The translations under genes were made by a program, and so were the position numbers. Below are positions 20,650 through 61,292 of a DNA stretch of 64,000 nucleotides, one piece after another (position 1 is the first letter of the stretch; each line of letters opens with the position of its first letter). The stretch spans positions 1 to 64,000 of the forward strand of contig LJHR01000027.1 in NCBI GenBank assembly GCA_001296005.1. The letters are read 5' to 3'. The DNA comes from an alpha proteobacterium AAP38. Its GTDB lineage: Bacteria; Pseudomonadota; Alphaproteobacteria; Azospirillales; Azospirillaceae. Below the pieces are notes generated by a model. That model saw only the letters and a program-made list of their open reading frames with translations. It ran no database searches and was not told the DNA's origin.

Positions 20650-20679
20650 TAATTCCCATTGAAAATATGGGGATTTATC

Positions 20680-21894: not shown

Positions 21895-21905
21895 AAGCCC
21901 CCGTC

Positions 21906-25881: not shown

Positions 25882-27072
25882 ATGGCGGTCAAGATCCTCT
25901 GGTACCTCACGGCACCCGATGGCCCGTTTCCCTGGGAACCGCAGGGGCGCTGGAACACCGATTTCCGGCATATGCAGCAACTGGCGGTGACCATCGACCG
26001 GCTGGGCTATCACGGCGCCCTGCTGGGCACCGGCCTGGGGGACGAGGTGCTGACGGTATCGTCCGCCATGATCGGGGTGACCAAACGCATGCGGTTCCTG
26101 GCCGCCATCCATCCGGGGCTGCTGTCGCCGGTGAAGCTGGCACAGATCGCCCTAACCCAGGACCGCTTCTCCGGCGGCCGCATGCTTTTCAATGTCGTCA
26201 ATGGCAATGACACGGTGCTGCCGGTGTTCGGCGTCAATTACGACCATGACGAGCGGTATGATTTTAGCTTTGAATATTGGGATGCGTTCCAGCGCTTCTA
26301 TAAAGGGCAGCGCGACGGCTATGCCGGCAAATATGTGAAGAAGCTGGCCCCGGCACCGCCAGAGTACGGCCTGGGTCGGCGTGGCGTGCGGGAGGCGCCG
26401 CTGAAGACGGTGCAGCCCGACGGCGTGCCGCTGTGGGGGGCGGGCAGTTCCTCCGCCGGGGTGGCGCATTCGGTGAAGCTGCTGGACACCTATCTCAGCT
26501 TTGCCGACACGCCGCCCAAGCTGGGTGACAAGTTCCGCTGCGTGGCGGCAGAGGCGGCAACTATTGGCCGCACCCTGAATTACGGCACCCGTCTGCAGGT
26601 CATCGTGCGCGAGACGGAGGAGGAGGCCTGGGACTACGCGCAATGGCTGCTGGATCACACCCATATCGACTATGCCCGGCAGTCGATTGAGATGCAGCTG
26701 CCGCGCGGGCAGACCATCGACAGCTTCACCAGCCCAGATCCCCGCATTCAGCATAATCTGGAGCTTGTCCGCCAGGGCCGGCTGCCACAGGCCAAGGACC
26801 TGGAGATTTATCCCAATGTCTGGGTCGGGCCGTCCTTGTTCGGCTTCAACATCCTGTCGCCGCTGGCCGGCACGGCGCTGGTGGGAAGTGCTGAGAATGT
26901 CGCCGCGCGCCTGCGTGAGTATGAGGCGCAGGGTTGTGGCGCCTTCATCCTGTCCGGCTTCCCGTTGATCAGCGAGGCGCAGCGTTTCGCCGATCTGGTC
27001 TTCCCGCTGCTGGATATCGACCATGGTTTCGACATTCCCCGCATGGGCCTGCGGGCCGGTGGCGCGGGTTGA
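25882..27072 (+). CDS. LLM-class monooxygenase, SsuD paralogue (copy 1 of a duplicated pair)
   Basis: A 396-residue FMNH2-dependent monooxygenase of the SsuD type. Landmarks: KILWYLTAPDGPFPWEPQGR, TQDRFSGGRMLFNVVNGND, DHDERYDFSFEYWDAFQRFY and the C-terminal ALVGSAENVAARLREYE. The SsuD catalytic His is replaced by Gln (TRLQVIVRETEEEAW) while the neighbouring Arg is kept, and SGYPH has become SGFPL, so it is probably a different-substrate paralogue. GGAGG precedes the ATG. It begins 17 bases after the TonB receptor and is followed 14 bases later by a family-5 binding protein. The gene pair is repeated at 28845-31642; the two LLM proteins are clearly similar over their whole length. Confidence 0.88.
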   Translation: MAVKILWYLTAPDGPFPWEPQGRWNTDFRHMQQLAVTIDRLGYHGALLGTGLGDEVLTVSSAMIGVTKRMRFLAAIHPGLLSPVKLAQIALTQDRFSGGRMLFNVVNGNDTVLPVFGVNYDHDERYDFSFEYWDAFQRFYKGQRDGYAGKYVKKLAPAPPEYGLGRRGVREAPLKTVQPDGVPLWGAGSSSAGVAHSVKLLDTYLSFADTPPKLGDKFRCVAAEAATIGRTLNYGTRLQVIVRETEEEAWDYAQWLLDHTHIDYARQSIEMQLPRGQTIDSFTSPDPRIQHNLELVRQGRLPQAKDLEIYPNVWVGPSLFGFNILSPLAGTALVGSAENVAARLREYEAQGCGAFILSGFPLISEAQRFADLVFPLLDIDHGFDIPRMGLRAGGAG

Positions 27073-28844: not shown

Positions 28845-30071
28845 ATGACCCGACCGATCAAGCTGCTCTGGTATCTGACCGCCCCCGATGGCCCCTATCC
28901 GTGGCAGCCGGAGGGGCGGTGGCATACGGGCCTGGACCATCTCCAGCAACTTGCCGTCACCATCGACCGGCTGGGTTTCTATGGCGCATTGCTGGGTACC
29001 AGCGCCTATGAAAGCCTGGCGGTGGCCGCTGCCCTGATCCCGGCCACCGAACGGATGAAGTTTCTGGTGGCCCAGCATCCGGGCGAGGTGTCGCCCGCCG
29101 TCCTGGCCAAATATGCGCAGACCTTCGACCATTTCTCCAAGGGCCGGCTGCTGTTCAATGTTGTGAACGGCAATGATGCCGGTCTGGCGGCGCTGGGTGT
29201 GCATTATCCCCATGACGAGCGCTATGAGTTCAGCTTCGAATATTGGGATGCGTTCCGCCGGGTCTATGCCGGTGAACGCGGCGGCTATGACGGTCAGTTC
29301 GTGAAGCTGGCCCCGCGCCCGGAAGGGGCTGCCCCGATGAGTGTCTGGGCCGGACCGTATCAGGCAGCGGGTGTGCCGCTCTGGGGTGCGGGCACGTCCG
29401 ATCCCGGCGTGGCGCATTCGGTGAAGCTGCTGGATGTCTATCTGTCCTTCGCCAATACCCCGCCCAAGTTGGGCGACAAGTTCCGCCGCGTCGGCGCAGA
29501 AGCCGCGAAGATCGGGCGGACCCTGCAATACGGCACCCGGTTGCAGGTCATCGTGCGCGAGACGGAGGAGGAGGCCTGGGCCCATGCCGAATGGCTGTTG
29601 CAGCGCTCTTCGGTGGCACATGCCCGCCGGTCGGTGGAACAGCGTCTGCCACCGGGACAGACGTTCGACACCTATGTCAGCGACGATCCGCAGGTACAGC
29701 GCAATCTGGAAAGTCTGCGGTCCGGTCGCCTGCCCAGCGCGCGTGATCTGGAAATCTACCCCAATGTCTGGGTGGGACCCGCCTGGTTTGGCTTTGACAT
29801 CATGGGTCCGGCCTCGGGGACAACGTTGGTCGGCAGTGCCGAGAATGTCGCGGCCCGCCTTCGCGAATATGCCGATCAGGGAACAGATGCCTTCATACTG
29901 TCCGGGTTCCCATTGGTGGGGGAAGCGCAGCGTGTCGCCGATTTGCTGTTCCCGCTGCTGAACCTGGATCATGGGTTCGACATCCCCTCGCTGCGGGTGA
30001 CCCCACCGGTGAGTGAGGTAGCTCCCAAGCCAAAGGCGGCTGCCAATGCCAAGGAGGCCCTGGTCGCATGA
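28845..30071 (+). CDS. LLM-class monooxygenase, SsuD paralogue (copy 2 of a duplicated pair)
   Basis: A 408-residue LLM protein very like the one at 25882: KLLWYLTAPDGPYPWQPEGR, FSKGRLLFNVVNGNDAG, HDERYEFSFEYWDAFRRVY, TRLQVIVRETEEEAWAHAEW and FILSGFPLVGEAQRVADLLF. It carries the same His-to-Gln change at the SsuD active-site position. It has an Ala/Pro/Lys-rich tail of about 20 residues that copy 1 lacks. It is the first gene after sigma-54 promoter P2 and overlaps the next gene by four bases (ATGA). It probably oxidises a compound imported by the ABC system that follows. Confidence 0.88.
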   Translation: MTRPIKLLWYLTAPDGPYPWQPEGRWHTGLDHLQQLAVTIDRLGFYGALLGTSAYESLAVAAALIPATERMKFLVAQHPGEVSPAVLAKYAQTFDHFSKGRLLFNVVNGNDAGLAALGVHYPHDERYEFSFEYWDAFRRVYAGERGGYDGQFVKLAPRPEGAAPMSVWAGPYQAAGVPLWGAGTSDPGVAHSVKLLDVYLSFANTPPKLGDKFRRVGAEAAKIGRTLQYGTRLQVIVRETEEEAWAHAEWLLQRSSVAHARRSVEQRLPPGQTFDTYVSDDPQVQRNLESLRSGRLPSARDLEIYPNVWVGPAWFGFDIMGPASGTTLVGSAENVAARLREYADQGTDAFILSGFPLVGEAQRVADLLFPLLNLDHGFDIPSLRVTPPVSEVAPKPKAAANAKEALVA

Positions 30072-49861: not shown

Positions 49862-49901
49862 AATACGCTCCATGGCAATATCGCCCACCATGGAGGTTCC
49901 C

Positions 49902-50471
49902 ATGCGTATCGTCGGCCTATCCGGCAGCTTGTCCCGCCAGTCGCGTATCACCACGCTGGTGGAGGATATGGTCTGTCGTCTGGCCGCACAGCTGGGGCCC
50001 GCCCAAACAAGGCTGGTGGAGGTGGCGGCATTGGCCCCGGCCCTGGCCGGGACGTTGCACCCGCGCGATGCGCTGCCCGCGCTATACAACGCTTTTGCGG
50101 CGCTGCGCACTGCCGATATCCTGGTGGTCGGCACGCCGGTTCAGAAGGGGTCCTACACCGGACTGCTGAAGCATTTCCTTGACCTGCTGGACCCGGATGA
50201 TCTGGCCGGAAAGACCGTGGTGCTGGCCGCCATGGGGGCGGCGGCGGACCCGCTGTCGATCATTGATCATCAACTGCGACCGCTTTTCGCCTATTTCGGC
50301 ACCCATACGGTGCCTACGGGCCTGTTCGTCCGGGATGGGGACTTTCAGGTCGATGTCGATGGCAGCTACGTCTTGTCCTCTGCGGCATTGCTGGCCCAGG
50401 CGGATCGTATTGCCGATGAAGTGGCGCGGCTGACGCGGGGAACGCTGGCCGGCGTTCCGGTCGTGGCTTGA
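49902..50471 (+). CDS. NAD(P)H-dependent FMN reductase (SsuE/MsuE/SfnF-like)
   Basis: A 189-residue flavodoxin-fold reductase that makes FMNH2 for two-component monooxygenases. It starts with RIVGLSGSLSRQSRI (phosphate-binding loop) and has the substrate-side motif GTPVQKGSYTGLLKHFLDLL that is typical of SsuE/MsuE. The ATG at 49902 follows GGAGG by 6 bases; the open frame from 49857 is not supported. It is the first gene behind sigma-54 promoter P4, ahead of the importer genes. It is the only clear dedicated FMN reductase in the window, so it probably serves the LLM and DszC-like enzymes encoded elsewhere in the island. Confidence 0.92.
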   Translation: MRIVGLSGSLSRQSRITTLVEDMVCRLAAQLGPAQTRLVEVAALAPALAGTLHPRDALPALYNAFAALRTADILVVGTPVQKGSYTGLLKHFLDLLDPDDLAGKTVVLAAMGAAADPLSIIDHQLRPLFAYFGTHTVPTGLFVRDGDFQVDVDGSYVLSSAALLAQADRIADEVARLTRGTLAGVPVVA

Positions 50472-50486
50472 GGTGGAGGCGAGACG

Positions 50487-51245
50487 ATGCGATCGACCCT
50501 TCAACAACGCTTGCTGCCATTACTGGTTCCCGGACTGATCCTGGCCACCTGGTTCGCCGTCACCAGCGGGGATGATTTTACGGCCCAGGTGTTGGTGCCA
50601 CCCGCTGCCGTTCTTGATAGTTTCAACGAGTTGCTGGCCAGCGGCGAGCTGGCCGACCATTTACGCGCCAGCTTGTCGCGTCTGCTGCTGGGCTTCGGCA
50701 TCGGTTCGGGTTTGGGGTTGGGCTTCGGCATCCTGCTGGCTCGCTCCGCCCTGGTGAATGCCTTTGCGGGCCCGTTCTTTCAGGCGGTGCGGCAGGTGCC
50801 GTCCATCGCCTTTCTGCCCATGCTGATCCTGCTGCTAGGTGTGGATGAGGGGTTCAAGCTGGCCATCGTCGCCAAGGCAGCTTTCTTCCCCGTGGCTCTG
50901 GCCACCCATGATGCGGTCAAGGGCATTTCAAAGGGATGGCTGGAAGTGGCCGCCATCTATCGCCTGTCGCCCCTGCGTGTGCTGTTTCGTCTGATCCTGC
51001 CGGCCACGGTGCCGCCGGTGCTGACGGGCCTGCGTCTGGGACTGACGCGCGCCTGGATCGTGCTGGTCGCGGCAGAACTGATGGCGGCGGAGAATGGCAT
51101 CGGCCAGATGATGGAGATGGGCCGCCAGATGTTCCGCATCGACACGGTGATGGTGGGGGTGGCCCTGACCGGCCTGATCGGGTTTGCCCTGGATCAGGGC
51201 GTGCGGTTGGCCGAACGCCGGCTGGTCCGCTGGAAAGCGGTTTGA
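50487..51245 (+). CDS. ABC transporter permease, sulfonate/taurine type, first of two
   Basis: A 252-residue inner-membrane permease of the SsuC/TauC group, about six hydrophobic segments, with the EAA loop GWLEVAAIYRLSPLRVLFRL. It begins 15 bases after the FMN reductase gene and is followed 13 bases later by a second, different permease. Two distinct permeases for one importer suggest a heterodimeric channel, which is less usual than the SsuC homodimer. Confidence 0.9.
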   Translation: MRSTLQQRLLPLLVPGLILATWFAVTSGDDFTAQVLVPPAAVLDSFNELLASGELADHLRASLSRLLLGFGIGSGLGLGFGILLARSALVNAFAGPFFQAVRQVPSIAFLPMLILLLGVDEGFKLAIVAKAAFFPVALATHDAVKGISKGWLEVAAIYRLSPLRVLFRLILPATVPPVLTGLRLGLTRAWIVLVAAELMAAENGIGQMMEMGRQMFRIDTVMVGVALTGLIGFALDQGVRLAERRLVRWKAV

Positions 51246-51258
51246 GGAGGGTTGGAAC

Positions 51259-52101
51259 ATGTCACTGATCGCTGAATTCCCTCCTACCTCCTTCGTTTAT
51301 GCCGACCGGATTGAGGATCATGATCCGCCGCCGGCCTGGCTGGTCGCCCTGGTCAAGCGGGCGCGCGGTCTGGTGCTGCCGCTTCTGCTGGCCGCCGCCT
51401 GGCATTGGGCGTCCAGCATCGACGCCAGCATGGCTTACGCCTTTGTGCCGCTGGATCAGGTCTGGGAGCGGCTGTTGCAATTGCTGTCCACGGGCGAACT
51501 GGCCATCAATGCCGGCTCCAGCCTTGGCCGCGCCCTGACCGGGCTGGCACTTGGCGGTCTGTCGGGCATCCTGCTGGGCAGCCTGATGGCCGGGTTCCCC
51601 CTGGTGGAGCGGCTGTTTGGGCCGCTGTTACAGGCCTTCCGGCAGGTACCGCCGCTGGGCTGGCTGCCGTTGGTCGGTCTGTGGCTGGGCAGCGGGGAGG
51701 AGGCCAAGCAATTGCTGGTCGCCGTCGCCGCCTTTCATCCGCTGCTGCTTAATTCCTATGAGGGCTTTGCCCAGGCAGAGAAGAAGCATCTGGAGGTGGG
51801 GCGGGTGCTGATGCTGTCCCGCTGGCGGAGTTTCCGCTTCATCCTGCTGCCTACGGCCTTGCCGTCCATTCTGACTGGCGTGGGCCAGGCGCTGGCCTTT
51901 GCCTGGATTTCCACCATTGGCGTGGAACTGCTGTTCGGCACGGGGGCTGGACTGGGGTCCCTGATGCACACCGCACAGATGGCGGGCGACATGGGTGTCG
52001 TTCTGCTGTGCGTCATCTCCATCGGCCTGATGGGCTATGGCCTGAACCTGATCCTGTCGCTGGTCCGCGCGCGTCTGCTGCGCTGGCGCGTCACCGGCTG
52101 A
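51259..52101 (+). CDS. ABC transporter permease, sulfonate/taurine type, second of two
   Basis: A 280-residue permease of the same family, with a hydrophilic N-terminus of about 35 residues and the EAA loop HLEVGRVLMLSRWRSFRFIL. The start at 51259 (MSLIAEFPPT) follows GAGGAGGG; the frame is open further upstream inside the previous gene. It differs enough from its neighbour to be a separate subunit rather than a fresh duplicate. Confidence 0.9.
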   Translation: MSLIAEFPPTSFVYADRIEDHDPPPAWLVALVKRARGLVLPLLLAAAWHWASSIDASMAYAFVPLDQVWERLLQLLSTGELAINAGSSLGRALTGLALGGLSGILLGSLMAGFPLVERLFGPLLQAFRQVPPLGWLPLVGLWLGSGEEAKQLLVAVAAFHPLLLNSYEGFAQAEKKHLEVGRVLMLSRWRSFRFILLPTALPSILTGVGQALAFAWISTIGVELLFGTGAGLGSLMHTAQMAGDMGVVLLCVISIGLMGYGLNLILSLVRARLLRWRVTG

Positions 52102-52117
52102 ACGTGGGAAAATCATC

Positions 52118-52909
52118 ATGAATGCCATCATTGATCCGCGTAGCGTCCAGGCTGACAGCGCGCCCGCCGTCGGTGGTCTTGCCATCCGGCACGTGCATAA
52201 AGGCTTTGATATCGACGGGCGCAAATTGTCGGTGTTGGAGGATGTCAGCCTGACCATCGCGCCCGGACAGTTCGTCTCCATCGTCGGGGCCAGCGGTTGC
52301 GGCAAGTCCACCTTGCTGCGCCTGATCGCCGGGCTGGAGCGGCAGGATAGCGGCGACATCCTGCTGAACGAGGTGCCTGTGGCCGGGCCGGGGCTGGATC
52401 GGGGCCTGATTTTTCAGGATCACCGGCTGTTTCCCTGGCTCACCGTTGAACAGAATGTACTACTGGCCCTGTCCAACAGTGACGAGGCGGCGACCGACAA
52501 ACGCGCCAGGGTAGCCAGTCTGTTGACCCTGGTGGGGCTGGACGGGTTTGCCCAGGCCTTTCCACATCAGCTGTCGGGTGGCATGGCGCAACGGGCGGCC
52601 ATTGCCCGCGCCCTGGCCCCGCAGCCACAGGTGCTTCTGCTGGATGAACCGCTGGGGGCGCTGGACGCCCTGACCCGGCTGCGTCTGCAATCGGAATTGC
52701 AACGCATCTGGCTGGCCCAGCGCAGCACCATGATCATGGTGACCCATGATGTGGATGAGGCGCTGTTCCTGGGCGACGTCATTGTCGTCATGCAGCCCGG
52801 TCGTATCGCCCGCATCCTGCATGTGCCCAGCACCCATCCGCGTGATCGCGCCGATCCGGCCCTGGCGCCGCTGAAGGCCGAAATCCTTTCCCTGCTGCAT
52901 GCCGGCTAA
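52118..52909 (+). CDS. ABC transporter ATP-binding protein, sulfonate/taurine type
   Basis: A 263-residue ATPase of the SsuB/TauB group. Walker A is GASGCGKST, the signature LSGGMAQRAAIARAL, Walker [13 protein letters not shown], and the H-loop His is in MVTHDVDEALFL. About 25 residues precede the first conserved strand. It sits between the second permease (16-base gap) and the DszB-like gene (33-base gap). It probably powers both permeases with the binding protein at 54020. Confidence 0.92.
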   Translation: MNAIIDPRSVQADSAPAVGGLAIRHVHKGFDIDGRKLSVLEDVSLTIAPGQFVSIVGASGCGKSTLLRLIAGLERQDSGDILLNEVPVAGPGLDRGLIFQDHRLFPWLTVEQNVLLALSNSDEAATDKRARVASLLTLVGLDGFAQAFPHQLSGGMAQRAAIARALAPQPQVLLLDEPLGALDALTRLRLQSELQRIWLAQRSTMIMVTHDVDEALFLGDVIVVMQPGRIARILHVPSTHPRDRADPALAPLKAEILSLLHAG

Positions 52910-52942: not shown

Positions 52943-54007
52943 ATGACCCTTGCCGCCCCGGCCAATATTGACACGCTCTGGTACACCCGCTGCTCCGTGC
53001 CCACACCGTTTGGGCTGGCGGCGCAGTTCGCCTGGTTCGAGCAGGAATTCGCCCCCGATGGCATCATCGTCAAGGCGTTGCGGGAATCTGCTGACCCGAT
53101 GGAGCAGGCATCCCATTTCACCCACTCCCTGCGCCATTCCTTCCGCCAGGGCGGGTCGGTTCCGCCCATCTGGGCGCGGGGGCAGGGGGTGCGGACCAAG
53201 GTGATCGGCATCACTTGGACCGATGAATATCAAGCCATCATTGCTCTGCCGCAATCGGGCATCCGTTCGGTGCGTGATCTGCGTGGCCGCCGGGTGGGCA
53301 TCCCCCATCATGGCAGTCTGGTTGATCATAACCGTATCTCCGCCTTGCGTGCCTTTACCGTGGCGCTGGAGACGGAAGGCTTGAGCCTTCAGGATGTGGA
53401 ACAGAAGGACTTGGCTGATGAGACGGTACCGTTGGCCAATGATCCGCGTGCCCCTGATGCCACGGTCACCTTCGCCGGTCGCCGCCGTCGCCATTCCTAC
53501 ACCAACGAGGTCTATGCCCTGGTCCGGGGCGAGGTTGATGCCGTCTATGTCAAGGACGTGCGCGGGGCGGAGGTGACGCAATTGTTGGGTGCCGGGATCA
53601 TTTTTGATCTGGGTTTTCATCCTGACCCCTTTATCCGCGTGTCTAACTGCACCCCGCGTCCGCTGACCGTGAATGAGGAGACAATTGAGAACCATCCAGA
53701 GATCGTCACCCGGTTTCTGCGTCAGGTGGTGAAGGCCGGCGAATGGGCGGCGCTGCATCCCGACGATGCCACGGCGCTGGTGGCGCGGGAGACGGGCTGG
53801 TCGGAGCGCTGGCTGCGCCGCGCCTATGGGGAGCAGTTGCACCGGTCGCTGTCAGTGGAGCTTTCGGAAGACAGCATCAAGGGACTGGGTGTCTTCAAGG
53901 ACTACATCGCTTCCATCGGGGCGCTGGACCAAGACTTCAACATTCATGACTGGATCGATCCGCGCCCGCTGGCCGAGGTGCAGGCCCGCATCCGGACCGC
54001 GGCATAA
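52943..54007 (+). CDS. DszB-like sulfinate desulfinase candidate, copy 1
   Basis: A 354-residue protein of the periplasmic-binding fold but without any signal peptide, so probably a cytoplasmic enzyme. It shows the signature of the DszB group (2'-hydroxybiphenyl-2-sulfinate desulfinase): Cys17 in LWYTRCSVPTPFGL, where DszB has its nucleophile Cys27 in a similar SNCPVP context, then His58 and Arg68 in HFTHSLRHSFRQGG, matching His60 and Arg70-x-Gly-Gly of DszB with the same 10-residue step. It would release sulfite from a sulfinate. The neighbours are an importer and a true binding protein, but no monooxygenase. The alignment is from memory; automatic annotation would probably call it an ABC binding protein. 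Confidence 0.75.
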   Translation: MTLAAPANIDTLWYTRCSVPTPFGLAAQFAWFEQEFAPDGIIVKALRESADPMEQASHFTHSLRHSFRQGGSVPPIWARGQGVRTKVIGITWTDEYQAIIALPQSGIRSVRDLRGRRVGIPHHGSLVDHNRISALRAFTVALETEGLSLQDVEQKDLADETVPLANDPRAPDATVTFAGRRRRHSYTNEVYALVRGEVDAVYVKDVRGAEVTQLLGAGIIFDLGFHPDPFIRVSNCTPRPLTVNEETIENHPEIVTRFLRQVVKAGEWAALHPDDATALVARETGWSERWLRRAYGEQLHRSLSVELSEDSIKGLGVFKDYIASIGALDQDFNIHDWIDPRPLAEVQARIRTAA

Positions 54008-54019
54008 GGAGGCTGGACC

Positions 54020-55090
54020 ATGATCAATCGCCGTTTCCTGCTGAAGGCCGGTGTCGCCGGTTTGGCTGCCGTCACCGCACCCGCCATCGTCACCCGTGCG
54101 CAAGCCCTGCCCAAATCCATCCGCATCGCCGGCGGCGTGAACTTCGCCCAGGGCCAGTTGCAATTGACCGGCTATGCCGCCGTGATTGAGCATCAGGGCT
54201 GGCTGGCGGCGGAACTGGACAAGCGCGGTGTGGCGCTGGAGCCGTTTGCCGTGTCACACAAGGCGACGGGCCCGCAGATCAATGAGGGCTTTGCCAACCG
54301 TTCCCTGGAATTCGCCTCCTATGGCGATCTGCCCACCATCATCTGCAATGCCAATGGCGTGCAGACACGGCTGCTGGTTCCCAATGGCATGGGCGGCAGC
54401 GGCGACACCTTCCTAGTGGTGCCGGCCGGGTCCACGGCCAAGGATGTGACGGATATGAAGGGTAAACGCATTGCGGTGCATCGTGGGCGGCCCTGGGAAA
54501 TCCCCTTCTTCCGGCTGCTGGCGGCACGCGGCTTGTCACCATCCGACTTCACCATTTTGAATATCGATCCGATGACGGGGGCGGCGGCTGTATCGGCGGG
54601 TAAGATCGACGGGCTGTTCACGATGACCGACGCCTATCTGCTCGAAGAAAAGGGCGTTGCCCGCATCCTCTGGTCCAGCAATGGGCAGGGGCCGGAATGG
54701 AAGATGCGGACGGAAATGTTCGGGCGGAAGGACTTCATCGAAAGCCAGCCGGAACTGACCCAGCTTGTTGTCACCGCCTATATCAAAGCCGCGCACTGGG
54801 CCTCTGATCCGGCCAACAAGGATAAGTACCTGGAGTTCCAGGGACGGACGGGGACACCGCGCAGCGTACTGAACCGTACCTATGATGAGCAGGGTGACGC
54901 GTGGCGGCAGCGCTGGGCGCCTCTGTTCGCCCCCGATATTGCCCAACGCTATCAGGACACGGTGCAATACGCCCTGGATAACAAGCTGATCCGCCAGCGG
55001 ATTGATGCCGCATCGCTTCTGGCGCCGTCCTTCGCGGGGAATGCGTTGAAAAGTCTTGGTCTTGAAGGCTATTGGCGGGGGGAGGCATGA
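54020..55090 (+). CDS. ABC transporter substrate-binding protein, sulfonate/nitrate type
   Basis: A 356-residue periplasmic binding protein with a twin-Arg-like signal (NRRFLLKAGVAGLAAVTAPA) and no lipobox. It resembles SsuA/TauA/NrtA-type proteins (SIRIAGGVNFAQGQLQLTGY, NRSLEFASYGDLPTI, MKGKRIAVHRGRPWEIPFFR). It starts 12 bases after the DszB-like gene and is the binding subunit of the importer encoded at 50487-52909. Having both an exported binding protein and a signal-less relative side by side supports an enzymatic role for the latter. Confidence 0.88.
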   Translation: MINRRFLLKAGVAGLAAVTAPAIVTRAQALPKSIRIAGGVNFAQGQLQLTGYAAVIEHQGWLAAELDKRGVALEPFAVSHKATGPQINEGFANRSLEFASYGDLPTIICNANGVQTRLLVPNGMGGSGDTFLVVPAGSTAKDVTDMKGKRIAVHRGRPWEIPFFRLLAARGLSPSDFTILNIDPMTGAAAVSAGKIDGLFTMTDAYLLEEKGVARILWSSNGQGPEWKMRTEMFGRKDFIESQPELTQLVVTAYIKAAHWASDPANKDKYLEFQGRTGTPRSVLNRTYDEQGDAWRQRWAPLFAPDIAQRYQDTVQYALDNKLIRQRIDAASLLAPSFAGNALKSLGLEGYWRGEA

Positions 55091-55227: not shown

Positions 55228-56301
55228 ATGGCGCTGCAACCTGGCGGGCGGGAAGGACCGCCCGGTTTAATGACCTTCGACAGTCCGGGCTTTCACTCGC
55301 AAAGCATCCGGGCCAGCGCCGTCGTGTTCGAAGATCCGGCATCGCGTCAGCTTTACGAGCGTATCGGCAGGATCGGCCCGTCTGAGGCGACGGTCCTGGT
55401 GGCCGGTGAGACGGGGACCGGCAAAGAGCTGGTCGCCCGTCTGCTGCACCGGTTGAGCCCGCGCGCCGCCCGGCCCTTCATCGCCATCAACTGCGCCGCC
55501 CTGCCGGAAAGCCTGGTGGAGAGCGAGTTGTTCGGCCATGAGCGCGGCGCCTTCACGGGTGCGGTCAGCGCCAAGCGTGGCTGGTTTGAAGCGGCCCAGC
55601 ATGGCACCCTGTTCCTGGATGAGATTGGCGACCTGCCCTTGTCGATGCAGGTGAAGCTTCTGCGGGTTCTACAGGAGCGGGAGATTTCCCGGGTCGGTGG
55701 CCGTGCGTCCATTCCCATCGATGTCCGCATCATCGCCGCCAGCCATGTCAATCTGGAAGGGGCCGTGCGGGCCGGACGGTTCCGGGAGGATCTGTATTTC
55801 CGCCTGAACGTGGCCCAGATCCGGGTGCCGGCGCTGCGCGAACGTCCTGCCGATATCCTGCCGCTGGCTGGGCATTTCCTGAAACTCTACGGTGACCGGT
55901 TGCGCATGCGCAGTATCGGGCTGTCACCCGCCGCAGAACGGTTGCTGACCGCCTATGCCTGGCCCGGCAATATCCGCGAGCTTGAGAATGTCATTCATCA
56001 CGCACTGCTGGTGATGAATGGGGAGGCGATTGGGCCGACCGATCTTAATTTGCCCGGACAGCGTATGCCGATGGAGACATCGCATACGCCCCTGACCCAG
56101 GAAGCAGCGCCCCCCGGTTTTGATGCCGCCCTTTTGCCCTTGTTCGAAAGCGGGGCAGAGAACCTGTATGAGCTGGTCGAGGCCAAGCTATTCCAGGCAG
56201 CGTATGAATATTGCCACCGTAATCAGCTGCAGACCGCCAAGCTGCTGGGTATCAGCCGCAACATCCTGCGGCACCGTTTGAAGCAGTACGGAATGCTGTA
56301 A
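55228..56301 (+). CDS. Sigma-54-dependent activator without sensor domain (SfnR-like), number 2
   Basis: A 357-residue enhancer-binding protein paralogous to the one at 35403. Walker A GETGTGKE (60-67), GAFTGA (107-112), Walker B LFLDEIGD (about 128-135), [15 protein letters not shown], and a C-terminal Fis-type helix-turn-helix (TAKLLGISRNILRHRLKQYG). Barely 35 residues precede the AAA+ domain, so there is no sensor domain; activity may be set by expression level or by a partner. ATG 55270 is an alternative start. It closes the FMN reductase/importer/DszB-like locus and is the natural activator of P4. Confidence 0.92.
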   Translation: MALQPGGREGPPGLMTFDSPGFHSQSIRASAVVFEDPASRQLYERIGRIGPSEATVLVAGETGTGKELVARLLHRLSPRAARPFIAINCAALPESLVESELFGHERGAFTGAVSAKRGWFEAAQHGTLFLDEIGDLPLSMQVKLLRVLQEREISRVGGRASIPIDVRIIAASHVNLEGAVRAGRFREDLYFRLNVAQIRVPALRERPADILPLAGHFLKLYGDRLRMRSIGLSPAAERLLTAYAWPGNIRELENVIHHALLVMNGEAIGPTDLNLPGQRMPMETSHTPLTQEAAPPGFDAALLPLFESGAENLYELVEAKLFQAAYEYCHRNQLQTAKLLGISRNILRHRLKQYGML

Positions 56302-56336: not shown

Positions 56337-57080
56337 TTACTCCGCCGCGGCGAGATGGATGGTGCCGTCATCATCCACGGTGGCATTGGACGGGATCAGG
56401 CCGCCCATGCGCCACTGCTGCTGCAACACGCCGGGGCCGAAGGGCTTGGGCCCGCCCAGGGCGGCGGCGGCCAGGATCTGGAAATGCGCCCCTTCCTCCA
56501 GGAACAGGATGGTATTGGCCAGATCAATGATGCCCTTCCGGCTCCACACCGTGGCGCCGCCGTTGGCCTCAATGATGCCGGGGACTTCCGTATCCTTGGC
56601 GATGCTGTCCAGAATGAAATCCACCTCCGGCTGGCGGCGGTTGATATAGACGGGCAGGCTGGCCGTCTTGCGGAAGCGGCGGTTGGGTACGTAGAGCAGC
56701 GGCAGTTCGGCATGGGCCTGGGAATAGGCGCCCAGGTTCGGGGTGTGGACATGGCTGATGGCCACGACATCATCATGGGTGCGGAACAGCTTGGTATAGC
56801 GTCCGCCGCCGGGCCCCGCACTCTTGCCCAAATAGACGGTGCCGTCGAAGCCGACAACGCTGGTCTTCACCTCGTCCAGGTCATCGCCCCAGGGGCCGGC
56901 ATAGTTGAGATTGACCAGGATCTGGCTGTCGGGGATGCGGATGGTGAAGCCCAGGGTGCCGGAGGGGGAGATGGTGCGGGTTTCCCGCAGCACGCGGAAG
57001 GCCTTGCGCGCATCCTTCTGCGCCTGGGTAACGAAGGCGAGCTGTTCGGCCGTCAGGCCGGGGGCGACGGTGTCGGTCAT
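56337..57080 (-). CDS. Class II aldolase/adducin-fold protein lacking a metal ligand
   Basis: A 247-residue protein of the class II aldolase/adducin fold. The first two zinc ligands are present as His110-x-His112 (ISHVHTP), but the third, normally in an N-H-G motif, is replaced by Gly (Asn173-Gly174-Gly175 in IIEANGGATVW), and the usual catalytic Glu of the S-S-E-W motif is not seen. The protein therefore may not be a standard aldolase. GGAGAGA precedes the ATG at 57080. It lies 24 bases after the LLM monooxygenase on the same strand, so the two should be co-expressed, perhaps acting on the product of the monooxygenase. Confidence 0.8.
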   Translation of the reverse strand: MTDTVAPGLTAEQLAFVTQAQKDARKAFRVLRETRTISPSGTLGFTIRIPDSQILVNLNYAGPWGDDLDEVKTSVVGFDGTVYLGKSAGPGGGRYTKLFRTHDDVVAISHVHTPNLGAYSQAHAELPLLYVPNRRFRKTASLPVYINRRQPEVDFILDSIAKDTEVPGIIEANGGATVWSRKGIIDLANTILFLEEGAHFQILAAAALGGPKPFGPGVLQQQWRMGGLIPSNATVDDDGTIHLAAAE

Positions 57081-57104: not shown

Positions 57105-58199
57105 TCAGGCGGCCTTGGCGGCGTCAAGCAGGGCGCGGATGCGGGGGATCACATGCTCACCCACGCGGTACGCCTCTTCCAGATGCGGGTTGGCGCCCAG
57201 GATGAAGCGGTCGATCCCGGCCCGCGCATAGTCGGCGAGGGTGGCGGCCACGGTGTCGTAGGACCCGACCAGACCCACACCTTCCTCCCCGCGCAGGGCG
57301 GCGAAGCCGGCCCACTGATCATCGCTTCGCCGGAAACTGTCAAAGCCGGGACGGTCGGCGGGTTCGCCCGACAGGCGCTGCACCCGCCGACCCGCCGCTT
57401 CCCACTGCCGGCGCAGGTGATCCCATGCCGCCTCGTCAGAATGGCGGGTGATGATGTCGGCAGCCAGGGCAAAACGTACATCCCGGCCGGCGGCGCGGGC
57501 ACGCACATCGGCGATGCGGGCCTTCAGTTCATCCAGCGGGGCAGGCGTCAGCAGATAGACATCGGCATGGCGTCCGGCCAGGGCCAATTCCCCCTCCGTA
57601 TCCCCGGACAGGTGGATTTCCGGCAGCTTTTGACCTGCCAGCGGACCGGCAAAGCCGCCCTTTTCCACCTCGTAATAGGTGCCCTTGTAATCAAAGGGTG
57701 CTTCGTTCCAGAAGCCCTTGACGATGTCCAGGAACTCGCCCGTGCGGGCCACCTGTTCCTCGCGCGACCGGCTGCGGCCGTGCCAGGCGCCGTCCTCTCC
57801 ATCATCGATATGCAGGTGCCAGGCAAGGCGGCCCGTGGTCAGGCGCTGAAAGCTGGTGGCGATCTTGGCGGCGTAGACGGGGGCGATGAACTGTGCGGGG
57901 AAGGAGGGCAGCAGCTTCAGCCGCCGCACCTCCTGTGCCAGCGACCCTGTAACCATCAGCGGTTCTTCCCCGCCGGACGTCTGCGGGATGGCTAGGCCGT
58001 CAAACCCCGCCAGCTCCGCCGCGCGGGCCACCTGTACCAGCAGGTCGTAATAGGTGAAGCCGTCGCGGCCTGTGCCGGTGCGGGCAAAGTCCCGCTGGTG
58101 ACCGGCGGGGTGGGCATAGTCGCCCCGGTTCCAGTCCTGGCGGTCGGCGGCGCGGCCATCACCCTGGGGCGGAAGGCGCCAATAGAACTCGATGCTCAT
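57105..58199 (-). CDS. LLM-class FMNH2-dependent monooxygenase (SsuD-related)
   Basis: A 364-residue LLM protein, closest in the window to the one at 20680 (shared starts SIEFYWRLPPQGDG and SIEFFSRLPLHGE, shared GEFLDIVKGFWNEAPFDYKG style). The SsuD catalytic His position is Asp (LAADIITRHS), and the SGYPH segment is changed to LGANPHLEEAYRVGEHV. The ATG at 58199 has GGAG about 8 bases upstream; the longer frame from 58286 would read into the operator region. It is followed by the aldolase-fold gene. A matching XRE operator lies upstream at 58309-58331. Confidence 0.87.
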   Translation of the reverse strand: MSIEFYWRLPPQGDGRAADRQDWNRGDYAHPAGHQRDFARTGTGRDGFTYYDLLVQVARAAELAGFDGLAIPQTSGGEEPLMVTGSLAQEVRRLKLLPSFPAQFIAPVYAAKIATSFQRLTTGRLAWHLHIDDGEDGAWHGRSRSREEQVARTGEFLDIVKGFWNEAPFDYKGTYYEVEKGGFAGPLAGQKLPEIHLSGDTEGELALAGRHADVYLLTPAPLDELKARIADVRARAAGRDVRFALAADIITRHSDEAAWDHLRRQWEAAGRRVQRLSGEPADRPGFDSFRRSDDQWAGFAALRGEEGVGLVGSYDTVAATLADYARAGIDRFILGANPHLEEAYRVGEHVIPRIRALLDAAKAA

Positions 58200-58308
58200 C
58201 GCGGACACTCCATGCGGCCCGCCCCCGGTCCCCTGGACCTCCGGCGTGGCTTCCGTTATATTGGAGAAACTGTCCGCTAAATTCACACCATCGCGGATGG
58301 TATGTCAA

Positions 58309-58348: not shown

Positions 58349-58972
58349 TCACCCGACCGACTGTGCATAGGTGATGACCATGTACATCACCGCTTCCTCA
58401 TCGCCGGGATTGGCGTAGGAATGGGGCAGGTCGGCGTTGAACCAGGTGGCGTCGCCGGCATCCAGGGTGACATGTTCGGTACCGACGCTGATTTCGATCC
58501 GGCCCTTGGTGACCACGATATTTTCCACAGTACCGGGCGCATGGGCGCTGGCCTTTTCCAGGCTGCGCGGCTTTACGACCAGTTCATAAAACTCCGTCTT
58601 GCGGTCGCCCTCGAACGGGAACAGGGCGCGCGACGTGAAGCTGCCATCCTTGGAGGTCAGCAGCTTGGCATCGCCTGCGCGCATCACCCGCAGGTTGGCG
58701 CGTTCGCCCCCGCCCATCAGGGTTGAGAACGGGATGTCGAGTGCCGAGGTGATCTTCCACAACAGGCCGATGGTCGGCATGGACCGGCCCGTCTCGATCT
58801 GACCGATCATGGCACGGCTGACGCCGGCGGCCTTGGCCAGCGCCTCCAGCGACAGGCCCCGCTTGGTGCGGATGCGCTTCAGGTTGGCACCGATCAGCTC
58901 CCCCAGTTCATCCGCACTGGTGTCGGGCTTCACGGCTTCCAACGCGTCGTCCAGCATCTCGTCCTTGGCCAT
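58349..58972 (-). CDS. XRE-family regulator with C-terminal cupin domain
   Basis: A 207-residue regulator. A helix-turn-helix of the XRE type covers about residues 28-86 (GANLKRIRTKRGLSLEALAK, then GVSRAMIGQIETGRSMPTIG) and a cupin sensor domain covers about 125-200 (HAPGTVENIVVTKGRIEISV and LDAGDATWFNADLPHSYANP). The start at 58972 (MAKDEML) follows GGAAGG; the longer frame from 59038 would cross the operator. Two identical operator-like sites, one in front of its own gene and one in front of the LLM operon, point to autoregulation and control of the monooxygenase. Relatives respond to small metabolites. Confidence 0.9.
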   Translation of the reverse strand: MAKDEMLDDALEAVKPDTSADELGELIGANLKRIRTKRGLSLEALAKAAGVSRAMIGQIETGRSMPTIGLLWKITSALDIPFSTLMGGGERANLRVMRAGDAKLLTSKDGSFTSRALFPFEGDRKTEFYELVVKPRSLEKASAHAPGTVENIVVTKGRIEISVGTEHVTLDAGDATWFNADLPHSYANPGDEEAVMYMVITYAQSVG

Positions 58973-59038
58973 GGTGCGCAGCCTTCCACGCAGTAAGGGT
59001 TGTAATGGCAGCATGGCACAGGATGCAAAAACGTCCAC

Positions 59039-59061: not shown

Positions 59062-59178
59062 AACGTCCGTTCAATAGAGCGGCATGATCCTGACCGTTGA
59101 TCCGCCTTGCGGTTTACCCAGCCGGCCACGGTTTTTCAAGCGGCCCACCGCCACATTCCCCATCCTTGGAGCCATTTC

Positions 59179-59769
59179 ATGTCGAACGCCGTTCGCACAT
59201 CTGCGCATCCCGTCTCCCCGTTTTTCCTGGAACGCTGGTCGGCCCGGTCGCTGACGGGGGAGACCATCAGCGAGGCGGAACTGCTGACCCTGTTCGAGGC
59301 GGCGCGGTGGGCGCCGTCAGGCTTCAACCAGCAGCCCTGGCGCTTTGTCTATGCACGGCGCGAGGGCGACCATTTTCCGCTGTTCCTGAACCTGCTGGCA
59401 GAGACTAACCGCCCCTGGGCGGAGAAGGCGGCGGCCATTGTCTTTGTCCTGTCGGAAAAGCGGTTTGAACGGAACGGCGAGTGGCATGACAGCACCTCGC
59501 ACGCCTTTGACACCGGCGCTGCCGCCTTCAGCCTGTCTCTGCAAGCCAGCATCCTGGGATGGAACACCCGTACCGTGGGCGGCATCAACCGGGCCGATGC
59601 CAAGCTGGCGCTGGGCGTTCCCGATGATTACAGCATCAATGTCGCCATCGTCATCGGGCGGCGCGGGGCCGCTGATGAACTGCCGGAAAAGTACCGGGCG
59701 CGTGAGGTGCTGACCGACCGTCTGCCCCTGGATAAGATCGTGGCGGAGGGGCGGTTCGCGGCGGCGTAA
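59179..59769 (+). CDS. Nitroreductase-family flavoprotein
   Basis: A 196-residue FMN-dependent nitroreductase-fold enzyme (RWSARSLTGETISEAELLTL, then ARWAPSGFNQQPWRFVYARR, DTGAAAFSLSLQASILGWNT). Such proteins use NAD(P)H to reduce nitro compounds, quinones or flavin. The start at 59179 follows GGAG; the frame is open to 59107. It is divergent from the XRE regulator and flanked by the LLM operon and the second DszB-like gene, so a flavin reductase role for the local monooxygenase is possible but unproven. Confidence 0.88.
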   Translation: MSNAVRTSAHPVSPFFLERWSARSLTGETISEAELLTLFEAARWAPSGFNQQPWRFVYARREGDHFPLFLNLLAETNRPWAEKAAAIVFVLSEKRFERNGEWHDSTSHAFDTGAAAFSLSLQASILGWNTRTVGGINRADAKLALGVPDDYSINVAIVIGRRGAADELPEKYRAREVLTDRLPLDKIVAEGRFAAA

Positions 59770-60018: not shown

Positions 60019-61110
60019 TCACGCCCTGCTGTCCAGCAGCTTGCGGGCCGCCTCCAGCGGTCGCGGGTCGGCCCAGGCGCGCAGGTCGAAATCATGGTCC
60101 AGGAAGCCATGGACCCAGAGGAACTTCTTCTGCTGATCAAACAGGGACAGACGTTCCTCCGACAGGTCGGGATGCAGGTTGCGGTGGAAATCCGGGCCAT
60201 AGGCAGCCGTCACGGCATCGCGGCTGCCGCGCGTTTCGGCCTGCAGGATGTCCTTCACCCCGTCCAGATTGCCGGCGGCCCAGTCGGCGGCGCGCAGCGT
60301 CTGGGCCAGGAAACGCACCACCAGATCGAAATGGTTTTCCAGCAGGTGGCTGTTCACCGTGATCGGACGCGGGGTGCCATTATTCACCCGGAAGCGGCGT
60401 TCGGGCAGGCGGTCCAGGTCGATACCGACCACCACGCCATGCTGACGCGCGGCGTCAACGGCGGATGCCCCCTTCACATAGATGGCGTCAACCTTGCCGG
60501 ACACCAGCGCATCCAGCGCCCACAGGCCGCCCAGGGCGCCGACGCGATCATCGCCGCCGGCCAGATCGCCCCGGCCATTGCCACGGCCCGACGCCACCTC
60601 CACAAATTCGACATCGTCAAAGGTCAGGCCCGCGAAGGACAGGGCGCCCTTGTAGCCGTGCAGGGACATGCCGCGCGCGATGGAGGTGCCGCGCACATGG
60701 TCGGGGATCGGGTTCTCATTATAGGAGGGCAGGGCCAGACGCTTGCCCTTCAGGTGCTTGGCCTCCGTGATGCCGCTGTCGGGGCGGACCAGGATGGACT
60801 GCCATTCATCGATCCATGTCAGACCGATCAGGCGGGTCGGGGCGCCTTGGGCACGGGCACCCAGCGCCAACATATTGCCACCCTCCCGGATCAGCGAGGT
60901 CAGGGCATGGTCATAATGATGGCGGCGCAACTGGTGCTGCCCGGTTTCCTGCAATGTTTCCAGGTTGATCTGGTCGCCCGCGAACTCTTCGCCCAGCCAC
61001 CCCAGCTTGTAAGCCAGACCGGTGGCGGTGGGCACGGGGCAACGGGTGAACCAAATCTTGTCCAGGGTGCTGGCAGCGGCATCGGCGGCCGGGGCGTGGA
61101 TATCTGGCAT
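60019..61110 (-). CDS. DszB-like sulfinate desulfinase candidate, copy 2
   Basis: A 363-residue paralogue of the protein at 52943, also without a signal peptide. The DszB-type residues are Cys24 in IWFTRCPVPTATGL, even closer to the DszB wording CPVP, and His65 with Arg75-Glu-Gly-Gly in HYDHALTSLIREGG, again a 10-residue step. The ATG at 61110 has AAGGA 6 bases upstream, so the longer frame from 61188 is not used. It is transcribed alone, convergent with the nitroreductase, next to the LLM/XRE unit. It would release sulfite from a sulfinate made by a local monooxygenase. A weak sigma-54-like pattern upstream was judged insufficient. Confidence 0.75.
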   Translation of the reverse strand: MPDIHAPAADAAASTLDKIWFTRCPVPTATGLAYKLGWLGEEFAGDQINLETLQETGQHQLRRHHYDHALTSLIREGGNMLALGARAQGAPTRLIGLTWIDEWQSILVRPDSGITEAKHLKGKRLALPSYNENPIPDHVRGTSIARGMSLHGYKGALSFAGLTFDDVEFVEVASGRGNGRGDLAGGDDRVGALGGLWALDALVSGKVDAIYVKGASAVDAARQHGVVVGIDLDRLPERRFRVNNGTPRPITVNSHLLENHFDLVVRFLAQTLRAADWAAGNLDGVKDILQAETRGSRDAVTAAYGPDFHRNLHPDLSEERLSLFDQQKKFLWVHGFLDHDFDLRAWADPRPLEAARKLLDSRA

Positions 61111-61292
61111 GGTGTTTCCTTTTGGCGGGAAGGCGGGCACGGCTTGCCCGTTCTGGCCGTTCAGGGAAGGGCCGGTGGCAAAGTGCATGGAATTGCAGAG
61201 GTGTCAGTTTAGTGTCTAAATTTCTAATATATTGGATGATCCGGTGCAAGCTAAAATCCGCGAGATTAGGGACTGTTGAGATTGAGAAAATC

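What the first reader, a model, noticed from the sequence alone, without database searches (positions are those of the whole stretch)
52943..54007. Probable DszB-type desulfinase hidden as an ABC binding protein (copy 1)
The protein has the binding-protein fold but no signal peptide. It keeps Cys17 in a TRCSVP context, His58, and Arg68-x-Gly-Gly exactly 10 residues after the His, the same set and spacing as Cys27, His60 and Arg70 of DszB. A real exported binding protein sits next to it. A sulfinate-releasing enzyme in an importer operon without a monooxygenase suggests that sulfinates themselves may be imported and used.
Basis: partly seen in the sequence, partly recalled or inferred. Interest (0 to 1): 0.8.

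Follow-up and report, generated by a model that had tools for sequence, protein, structure and literature searches.

The report
DszB-like desulfinase in sulfur-scavenging island

Summary
Window 52943-54007 (354 aa) is a real relative of the sulfinate desulfinase DszB. DszB is its best match by sequence (E 1.2e-14; SsuA-type proteins 0.0098 or worse) and by predicted fold (Z 32.8 against 25.6 for SsuA). Cys17, His58 and Arg68-x-Gly-Gly align with DszB Cys27, His60 and Arg70; no signal peptide is seen, and an exported binding protein lies next door. Two more copies with the same triad lie at 60019-61188 and just beyond the window.

The 'no monooxygenase' argument fails. The operon starts with an FMN reductase, an SsuD-like monooxygenase lies 3.1 kb away, and 6 of the genome's 9 luciferase-type monooxygenase matches plus an SfnB/DszC-like protein lie in this island.

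The family is widespread in Proteobacteria. It shares DszB's triad but has its own conserved charged residues (E95, K204, R239), so its substrate probably differs.

Evidence against: in copy 1's own clade the cysteine is Ser, Gly or Pro in 4 of 7 rows, and in one bacterial family 33 of 35 fetched genomes hold a natural Cys-to-Ser copy beside intact ones. Desulfinase activity is likely but unproven.

The parts
52943..54007 (+). DszB-like protein, copy 1 (354 aa, no signal peptide); relatives are mostly annotated as ABC transporter substrate-binding protein
52991..52993 (+). codon of Cys17 (DszB Cys27 position)
   Evidence: sequence; alignment
53114..53116 (+). codon of His58 (DszB His60 position)
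   Evidence: sequence; alignment
53144..53146 (+). codon of Arg68 in RQGG (DszB Arg70, RXGG motif)
   Evidence: sequence; alignment
49896..50471 (+). FMN reductase, MsuE/SsuE-like, first gene of the operon
   Evidence: MsuE 149 bits, cut-off 212.5
50487..51245 (+). ABC permease, SsuC-like
51259..52101 (+). second ABC permease
52118..52909 (+). ABC ATPase of the nitrate/sulfonate/taurine type
54020..55090 (+). exported binding protein (twin-arginine-like signal), SsuA/NMT1 type
55228..56301 (+). sigma-54 activator with Fis-type HTH
56337..57080 (-). class II aldolase-like protein; such genes lie near DszB-like genes in 28 of 79 loci
57105..58286 (-). SsuD-like FMNH2-dependent monooxygenase (luciferase type)
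   Evidence: SsuD 1nqk E 1.8e-37
58349..59038 (-). XRE-cupin regulator
59107..59769 (+). nitroreductase-family protein
60019..61188 (-). DszB-like protein, copy 2 (Cys50, His91, Arg101; likely true start at Met27, 61110)
11142..12215 (-). SsuD-like luciferase-type monooxygenase
20659..21894 (+). SsuD-like luciferase-type monooxygenase
21891..23132 (+). SfnB/DszC-like flavin monooxygenase of the acyl-CoA dehydrogenase fold
   Evidence: SfnB 407 bits, cut-off 430.9; DszC 208 bits, cut-off 850
25882..27072 (+). SsuD-like luciferase-type monooxygenase
28845..30071 (+). SsuD-like luciferase-type monooxygenase

Best explanation
Copy 1 is a cytoplasmic enzyme on the binding-protein fold, of the DszB family but of its own proteobacterial subfamily. 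Most likely it is a cofactor-free sulfinate desulfinase. An organosulfur compound enters through a TonB receptor and the ABC importer (exported binding protein 54020-55090). FMNH2-dependent monooxygenases of the island, fed by the FMN reductase, oxidise and cleave it to a sulfinate. The DszB-like proteins then close on the sulfinate (Arg68 and His58 holding it) and the Cys17 thiol replaces the C-S bond by C-H, releasing sulfite for assimilation. Shown: homology to DszB, fold, triad, lack of a recognisable signal peptide, placement in a sulfur island with oxygenases, purifying selection. Inferred: the reaction, the order of steps, and a substrate more polar than DszB's biphenyl.
For: phmmer against the PDB: DszB 1.2e-14 for copy 1 and 1.9e-16 for copy 2; SsuA-type 0.0098 at best for copy 1, none up to 0.1 for copy 2. 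Model pLDDT 93; DszB Z 32.8 over 315 residues, SsuA 25.6; Foldseek 9e-22 against 2.7e-15 for the best other protein. His58 lies in a predicted helix 52-60, and residues 168-181 have low confidence; in DszB, residues 55-62 and 187-204 are the parts that fold on substrate binding (PMC6100217, Introduction read). Triad across 164 family members: Arg68 163, His58 148, Cys17 139, GG 164 (Cys is inflated because most loci were fetched with a Cys pattern); without that bias 68 of 103 readable members are C-H-R. Copy 1 keeps C-H-R in 4 of 4 genus genomes that hold it, dN/dS 0.04-0.07. Luciferase-type monooxygenase near in 69 of 79 loci and in 41 of 46 genomes of the unbiased set; directly upstream of the tandem pair in 29 of 33. 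6 of the genome's 9 luciferase-type matches lie in C20:11244-66974.
Against: In copy 1's clade of 7 rows (SH-aLRT 98) only 3 have Cys, two of these being near-identical Niveispirillum proteins; 2 have Ser, 1 Gly, 1 Pro. DszB C27S is inactive (PMC6100217), so those relatives must work otherwise. The nearest monooxygenases resemble SsuD, which as I recall frees sulfite from sulfonates directly and needs no desulfinase. Copy 1 scores as high against NCBIfam's SsuA family as its exported neighbour does (95.3 and 95.1 bits, both below the cut-off of 163.5). Residues beside the triad differ from DszB: H61 for Tyr63, L63 for Gln65, E95 for Gly, K204 for Trp, R239 for Ser. No activity, expression or substrate data. 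Triad distances in the model could not be measured.
Confidence: 0.6

Rival explanations
1. Copy 1 does no chemistry. It is a cytoplasmic binding protein (a sulfinate or sulfonate chaperone, sensor or enzyme partner) that happens to have kept Cys17, like the Cys-to-Ser, Gly and Pro copies in the same clade.
For: 4 of 7 rows in its clade lack Cys while keeping His58 and Arg68. All 16 non-Cys rows of the tree set keep E95 and R239, 15 keep Arg68 and 15 keep K204. In one family 33 of 34 Ser copies lie directly behind a Cys copy, and Ser and Cys copies are equally conserved between genomes (median identity 78% each). Copy 1 is the one copy of this genome that lies inside a transporter operon.
Against: Copy 1 keeps Cys in 4 of 4 genus genomes that hold it, under strong purifying selection; copies 2 and 3 sit in clades with Cys in 16 of 16 and 7 of 7 rows; 68 of 103 readable members of the unbiased set have the whole triad.
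Confidence: 0.22
2. One reading: sulfinates themselves are imported by this ABC transporter and cleaved without any oxygenation.
For: Copy 1 lies between the ATPase and the exported binding protein, and no oxygenase is on the same strand of that operon.
Against: FMN reductase is the first gene of the operon; an SsuD-like monooxygenase is 3.1 kb away and six luciferase-type matches lie in the island, with an SfnB/DszC-like protein; a luciferase-type gene is near in 69 of 79 loci, and directly upstream of the DszB-like pair in 29 of 33 cases.
Confidence: 0.08
3. An enzyme of the DszB family with another reaction: Cys-dependent removal of another group (for example a sulfonate or carboxylate) from a different substrate.
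For: Subfamily-specific charged residues E95 (111 of 114), K204 (105), R239 (110), R232 (107) absent from DszB; other enzymes on this fold, Thi5, MqnA/MqnD and 4,5-dihydroxyphthalate decarboxylase, appear among the structural matches.
Against: DszB is by far the nearest solved protein by sequence and fold, and the neighbourhood is organosulfur metabolism.
Confidence: 0.08
4. An ordinary exported substrate-binding protein with a missed signal peptide.
For: Pfam and NCBIfam see only NMT1 and, below cut-off, the SsuA and TRAP_TAXI families; public annotation mostly calls relatives substrate-binding proteins. Four of the longer family frames reach hydrophobicities of 1.3 to 1.97 upstream of the motif, and some binding proteins fall below 1, so that test overlaps at the edges.
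Against: 38 of 68 family frames leave at most 20 residues before the Cys motif; score gap to the exported proteins of the same loci (family above 300 bits apart from two cut-off genes at 165-166, others 81 or less; family 220 or more apart from one partial at 138, others 56 or less); tree; an exported protein is next door.
Confidence: 0.02

Closest known systems
[quoted passage not shown]
   Same: fold over nearly the whole chain, Cys-His-Arg-x-Gly-Gly set, no signal peptide, company of flavin-dependent monooxygenases
   Different: about 24-28% identical; not in a dszABC operon; H61, L63, E95, K204, R239 in place of DszB's Tyr63, Gln65, Gly, Trp, Ser; the relatives found here are mostly proteobacterial, often several copies per locus
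SsuA / TauA, exported sulfonate-binding proteins
   Same: type 2 binding-protein fold, sulfonate-type ABC operon
   Different: exported; no Cys, His or Arg aligned at the triad columns in five checked proteins, mostly gaps in a distant alignment
ssuEADCB and sfn/msu sulfur-scavenging systems
   Same: FMN reductase, SsuD-like monooxygenases, SfnB-like protein, ABC importer, sigma-54 activators in one island
   Different: adds DszB-like proteins, aldolase-like proteins and TonB receptors; the annotated 8-kb stretches around E. coli tau and ssu list no such gene

Membership tests
DszB superfamily (sulfinate desulfinase-like, cytoplasmic) | closer to DszB than to any solved binding protein by sequence | tested here: met
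DszB superfamily (sulfinate desulfinase-like, cytoplasmic) | closest solved fold is DszB | tested here: met
   Z 32.8, rmsd 3.0 over 315 residues, against 25.6 for SsuA
DszB superfamily (sulfinate desulfinase-like, cytoplasmic) | Cys27, His60 and Arg70-x-Gly-Gly equivalents present | tested here: met
   Cys17, His58, Arg68-Q-G-G; not kept by all relatives in the same clade
DszB superfamily (sulfinate desulfinase-like, cytoplasmic) | no signal peptide | tested here: met
   (hydrophobicity only)
DszB superfamily (sulfinate desulfinase-like, cytoplasmic) | groups with DszB and apart from exported proteins | tested here: met
   48 rows against 40, support 0.975; the same split with support 77 and a long-branch warning
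DszB superfamily (sulfinate desulfinase-like, cytoplasmic) | triad residues meet in the cleft | not testable with these tools
   no coordinates of the model among the files open to scripts (file list)
DszB superfamily (sulfinate desulfinase-like, cytoplasmic) | releases sulfite from a sulfinate | not testable with these tools
   needs an assay
DszB proper (HBPS desulfinase, EC 3.13.1.3) | gene between dszA and dszC | tested here: not met
   neighbours are ABC ATPase and exported binding protein
DszB proper (HBPS desulfinase, EC 3.13.1.3) | Tyr63 and Gln65, whose mutation changes DszB activity | tested here: not met
   H61 and L63 here (role of Tyr63/Gln65 from PMC6100217)
Exported SsuA/TauA-type binding protein | signal peptide | tested here: not met
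Exported SsuA/TauA-type binding protein | reaches the curated SsuA family cut-off | tested here: inconclusive
   95.3 bits, cut-off 163.5; but the exported neighbour also fails with 95.1, so the test does not discriminate

The most novel reading that the evidence does not exclude
Many bacteria run a two-part cytoplasmic desulfinase: an intact DszB-like enzyme plus a conserved tandem copy in which the catalytic cysteine is naturally serine, the very change that lets crystallographers trap substrate in DszB. The Ser, Gly or Pro copies, and perhaps copy 1 of this window, would be sulfinate-binding partners that hand over, store or sense the substrate next to the importer. The binding-protein fold would thus have gone from carrier to enzyme and back to carrier.
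Probability: 0.22. Interest if true: 0.72.

Novelty: new variant of a known kind. Interest (0 to 1): 0.52.

Why it matters
DszB is known mainly from bacterial petroleum desulfurisation. Here its relatives appear as a widespread, mostly mis-annotated part of sulfur scavenging in Proteobacteria (many of them soil or plant-associated genera by name), in loci with oxygenases and importers. If active they would complete a 4S-like route for natural organosulfur compounds and give many new desulfinases. The conserved Cys-to-Ser tandem copies make a sharp, testable question about binding without catalysis.

Tried and rejected
Rejected: exported binding protein with a missed signal (tree). Rejected: importer operon without oxygenation. 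Chance resemblance rejected (E 1.2e-14).

Led nowhere: neither Pfam nor NCBIfam gave a DszB-like model for this protein at E 0.001. The class II aldolase-like neighbour had no PDB match by sequence up to E 0.01. Literature searches (open-access library only) listed no paper that I could recognise as treating the proteobacterial proteins or a Cys-to-Ser pair. I saw listings, passages of PMC6395730, PMC3868597, PMC7661421, PMC4839641, PMC11852219 and PMC7142613, a passage plus the Introduction of PMC6100217, and no hit for my terms in PMC12168087. Lee et al. 2006 (DszB structure) was not read. PMC6395730 and PMC11852219 report DszA-like genes without a DszB in their organisms; PMC4839641 reports DszB-like peptides in Chelatococcus. 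One structure job, 1 of 10 paper searches, 6 of 12 family scans and 4 of 12 genome searches were not used.

Corrected on checking: one search hid monooxygenase genes that lie inside over-long open frames of the family; trims those frames and gives 69 instead of 66 of 79 loci, and 41 instead of 31 of 46 genomes. The label 'ACAD' mixes SfnB/DszC-like proteins (seeds L012 and dszC) with an acyl-CoA dehydrogenase-like seed (L006) that matches neither at 1e-30, so I give it as fold only.

Limits of the counts: the 79 loci were fetched with a pattern that demands Cys, so Cys is over-represented. The 46-genome set comes from HMM searches without that demand, but covers two bacterial families only, with fetched stretches of unequal length (about 3.6 to 20 kb); G712 (one partial match) was not fetched, and 2 of 105 members had no readable triad. 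One member (L016) is split by an X. In one search the motif was printed for 32 of 34 Ser copies; the other two were found Ser by alignment. Absence in the genome search rests on a limited first look (at most 5 or 6 candidates scored per genome).

Full report
What was checked. The ORF 52943-54007 (+) encodes 354 residues. Against the PDB its best sequence match is DszB (2de2, E 1.2e-14); exported SsuA-type proteins reach 0.0098 at best. Copy 2 (60019-61188, -) matches DszB at 1.9e-16 and nothing else up to 0.1. The alignment puts Cys17, His58 and Arg68-Q-G-G on DszB Cys27, His60 and Arg70-F-G-G. Only the His-Arg spacing of ten is identical; Cys to His is 41 residues here and 33 in DszB, through two short insertions. 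Copy 2 has Cys50, His91, Arg101. A third copy lies beyond the window at C20:70243-71268 with the same triad.

Fold. A model built from copy 1 and 69 relatives has mean pLDDT 93. DszB with bound substrate is the best solved match (Foldseek 9e-22; Z 32.8, rmsd 3.0 over 315 residues). The best other protein has Foldseek 2.7e-15, and SsuA has Z 25.6. The segment with His58 (52-60) is a helix and 168-181 has low confidence. DszB's two segments that fold when substrate binds are 55-62 and 187-204 (PMC6100217, Introduction). Coordinates were not among the files open to scripts, so triad distances were not measured.

Not exported. Twelve residues precede the WYTRC motif and there is no hydrophobic core: maximum 0.93 for copy 1, 1.92 for the neighbouring binding protein, 2.24 and 2.25 for E. 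coli SsuA and TauA. In 68 family frames, 38 leave at most 20 residues before the motif. The test overlaps at the edges: a few longer family frames reach 1.3 to 1.97, and a few of 35 binding proteins fall below 1. In the loci first fetched the family scores above 300 bits, except two genes cut by a locus end (165-166), and the other hits 81 or less. In the second set the family scores 220 or more, except one partial at 138, and the others 56 or less.

Phylogeny. In a FastTree of 88 proteins, the 48 family members including two DszB form one clade without any of 40 binding proteins (support 0.975). An IQ-TREE quick tree of 121 rows with five binding proteins keeps the same split, but with support 77 and a long-branch warning; DszB's place relative to the rest of the family is unsure. 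Against this, NCBIfam's SsuA family scores copy 1 (95.3 bits) as high as the exported neighbour (95.1), both below the cut-off.

Distribution. The nearest relatives (96-98%) are Niveispirillum. In the own genus 4 of 11 genomes including the window's carry full-length matches. A sample of the phylum has 7 of 398 genomes including the window's own; two bacterial families have 36 of 298 and 11 of 297. Public annotation mostly calls them ABC transporter substrate-binding proteins, but also 'monooxygenase' or hypothetical protein.

The island. Copy 1's operon is FMN reductase, two permeases, ATPase, copy 1, exported binding protein, then a sigma-54 activator. On the other strand follow an aldolase-like protein, an SsuD-like monooxygenase (57105-58286; E. 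coli SsuD 1nqk E 1.8e-37) and an XRE-cupin regulator. A further SsuD-like monooxygenase (C20:65931-67178), a TonB receptor, copy 3 and a second aldolase-like gene lie beyond the window. Of the genome's 9 luciferase-type matches, 6 lie in C20:11244-66974, about 1% of the genome, and 5 of these are in the window. The genome's best DszC relative is at 21891-23132 and is near the SfnB family cut-off (407 of 430.9 bits).

Neighbours elsewhere. In 79 loci (up to 10 kb each side): luciferase-type monooxygenase 69, sulfonate-type transporter parts 44, acyl-CoA-dehydrogenase-fold proteins 35, TonB receptor 34, aldolase-like 28, sigma-54 activator 21 (one search gave 66 for the first because over-long frames hid some genes). 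In the 46 genomes found without a Cys pattern: monooxygenase 41, aldolase-like 32, transporter parts 28, TonB 24, acyl-CoA-dehydrogenase-fold 17. The last class mixes SfnB/DszC-like proteins with others. The own genome's 9 luciferase-type matches in 5.78 Mb would give about 0.03 per 20 kb by chance (arithmetic).

Triad. Of 164 unique members: Arg68 163, GG 164, His58 148, Cys17 139 with 21 Ser, 3 Gly, 1 Pro (Cys-biased). In the unbiased set of 105: 68 C-H-R, 34 S-H-R, 1 G-H-R, 2 unreadable. All 34 S-H-R copies come from 33 of the 35 fetched genomes of one family (36 had a match) and none from the 11 of the other (one of these unreadable). Of the 34, 33 lie directly behind a C-H-R copy on the same strand, and in 29 of these 33 cases a luciferase-type monooxygenase gene lies directly upstream of the C-H-R copy. 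The motif changes from WYTRCPVP to WYTHSPVP (printed for 32 of 34). Ser and Cys copies are 59-68% identical within a genome and equally conserved between genomes (median 78% each). Named Pseudomonas loci L076, L089 and L093 show the pair too. DszB C27S is inactive but was crystallised with substrate (PMC6100217), so these are natural counterparts of that mutant.

What that means for copy 1. Copy 1's starred clade of 7 rows holds 3 Cys (two of them near-identical Niveispirillum), 2 Ser, 1 Gly, 1 Pro; copy 2's has Cys in 16 of 16, copy 3's in 7 of 7. The tree needs at least 6 changes at this site. Within the genus copy 1 keeps the full triad in 4 of 4 genomes that hold it, with dN/dS 0.04-0.07, lower than copy 2's 0.16-0.26 (copy 2 compared with four proteins, one from another genus). 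Copy 1 is therefore under selection as a working protein, but its clade tolerates loss of the cysteine, which lowers the claim for this copy below that for copies 2 and 3.

Substrate. The subfamily conserves E95 (111 of 114), K204 (105), R232 (107), P238 (113), R239 (110) and H61 (108), where DszB has Gly, Trp, a gap, Ala, Ser and Tyr. I infer a more polar or doubly charged substrate than biphenyl sulfinate; whether these residues line the pocket was not measured. Non-Cys rows keep E95 and R239 (16 of 16), which fits binding kept without catalysis.

Verdict. Family membership with DszB is well supported by computation. Desulfinase activity of copy 1 is likely (0.6) but not shown. The import-of-sulfinates inference is not supported. 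The most interesting new point is the conserved natural Cys-to-Ser partner, found in relatives and not in the window itself.

Noticed in passing
L169-L208 (33 genomes), L076, L089, L093: Conserved tandem pair of DszB-like genes: intact C-H-R copy followed by a natural Cys-to-Ser copy (WYTRCPVP to WYTHSPVP), equally conserved, with a luciferase-type monooxygenase gene directly upstream in 29 of 33 cases.
   Followed up: partly
window 11142-58286 and C20:65931-67178: Organosulfur island: 6 of the genome's 9 luciferase-type monooxygenase matches, an SfnB/DszC-like protein, three ABC importers and, in the window, four TonB receptors.
   Followed up: partly
window 56337-57080; L004 13419-14102: Class II aldolase-like proteins recur near DszB-like genes (28 of 79 loci). 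They keep HxH (H110, H112 in 38 of 38) but have N-G-G where class II aldolases, as I recall, carry a third zinc His.
   Followed up: partly
L007 9546-10595 (Sphingobium plasmid): A copy with Cys and Arg but Asp at the His58 position, in one locus with two intact copies.
   Followed up: no
L006, L214 (L006 is an Ensifer plasmid): Two DszB-like genes flank an acyl-CoA-dehydrogenase-fold gene, followed by an NtaA/DmoA-family monooxygenase: a set reminiscent of the 4S pathway, though the former matches neither the DszC nor the SfnB model at 1e-30.
   Followed up: partly
window 45788-49387: Large reverse-strand protein (1199 aa) with a GPPGTGKT motif, by eye helicase-like, next to the island; not searched.
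   Followed up: no
window 27087-28646: By eye a binding protein with a twin-arginine/lipoprotein-like start (MINLSRRHLLAAGG...LTGC) between two SsuD-like monooxygenases; not searched.
   Followed up: no
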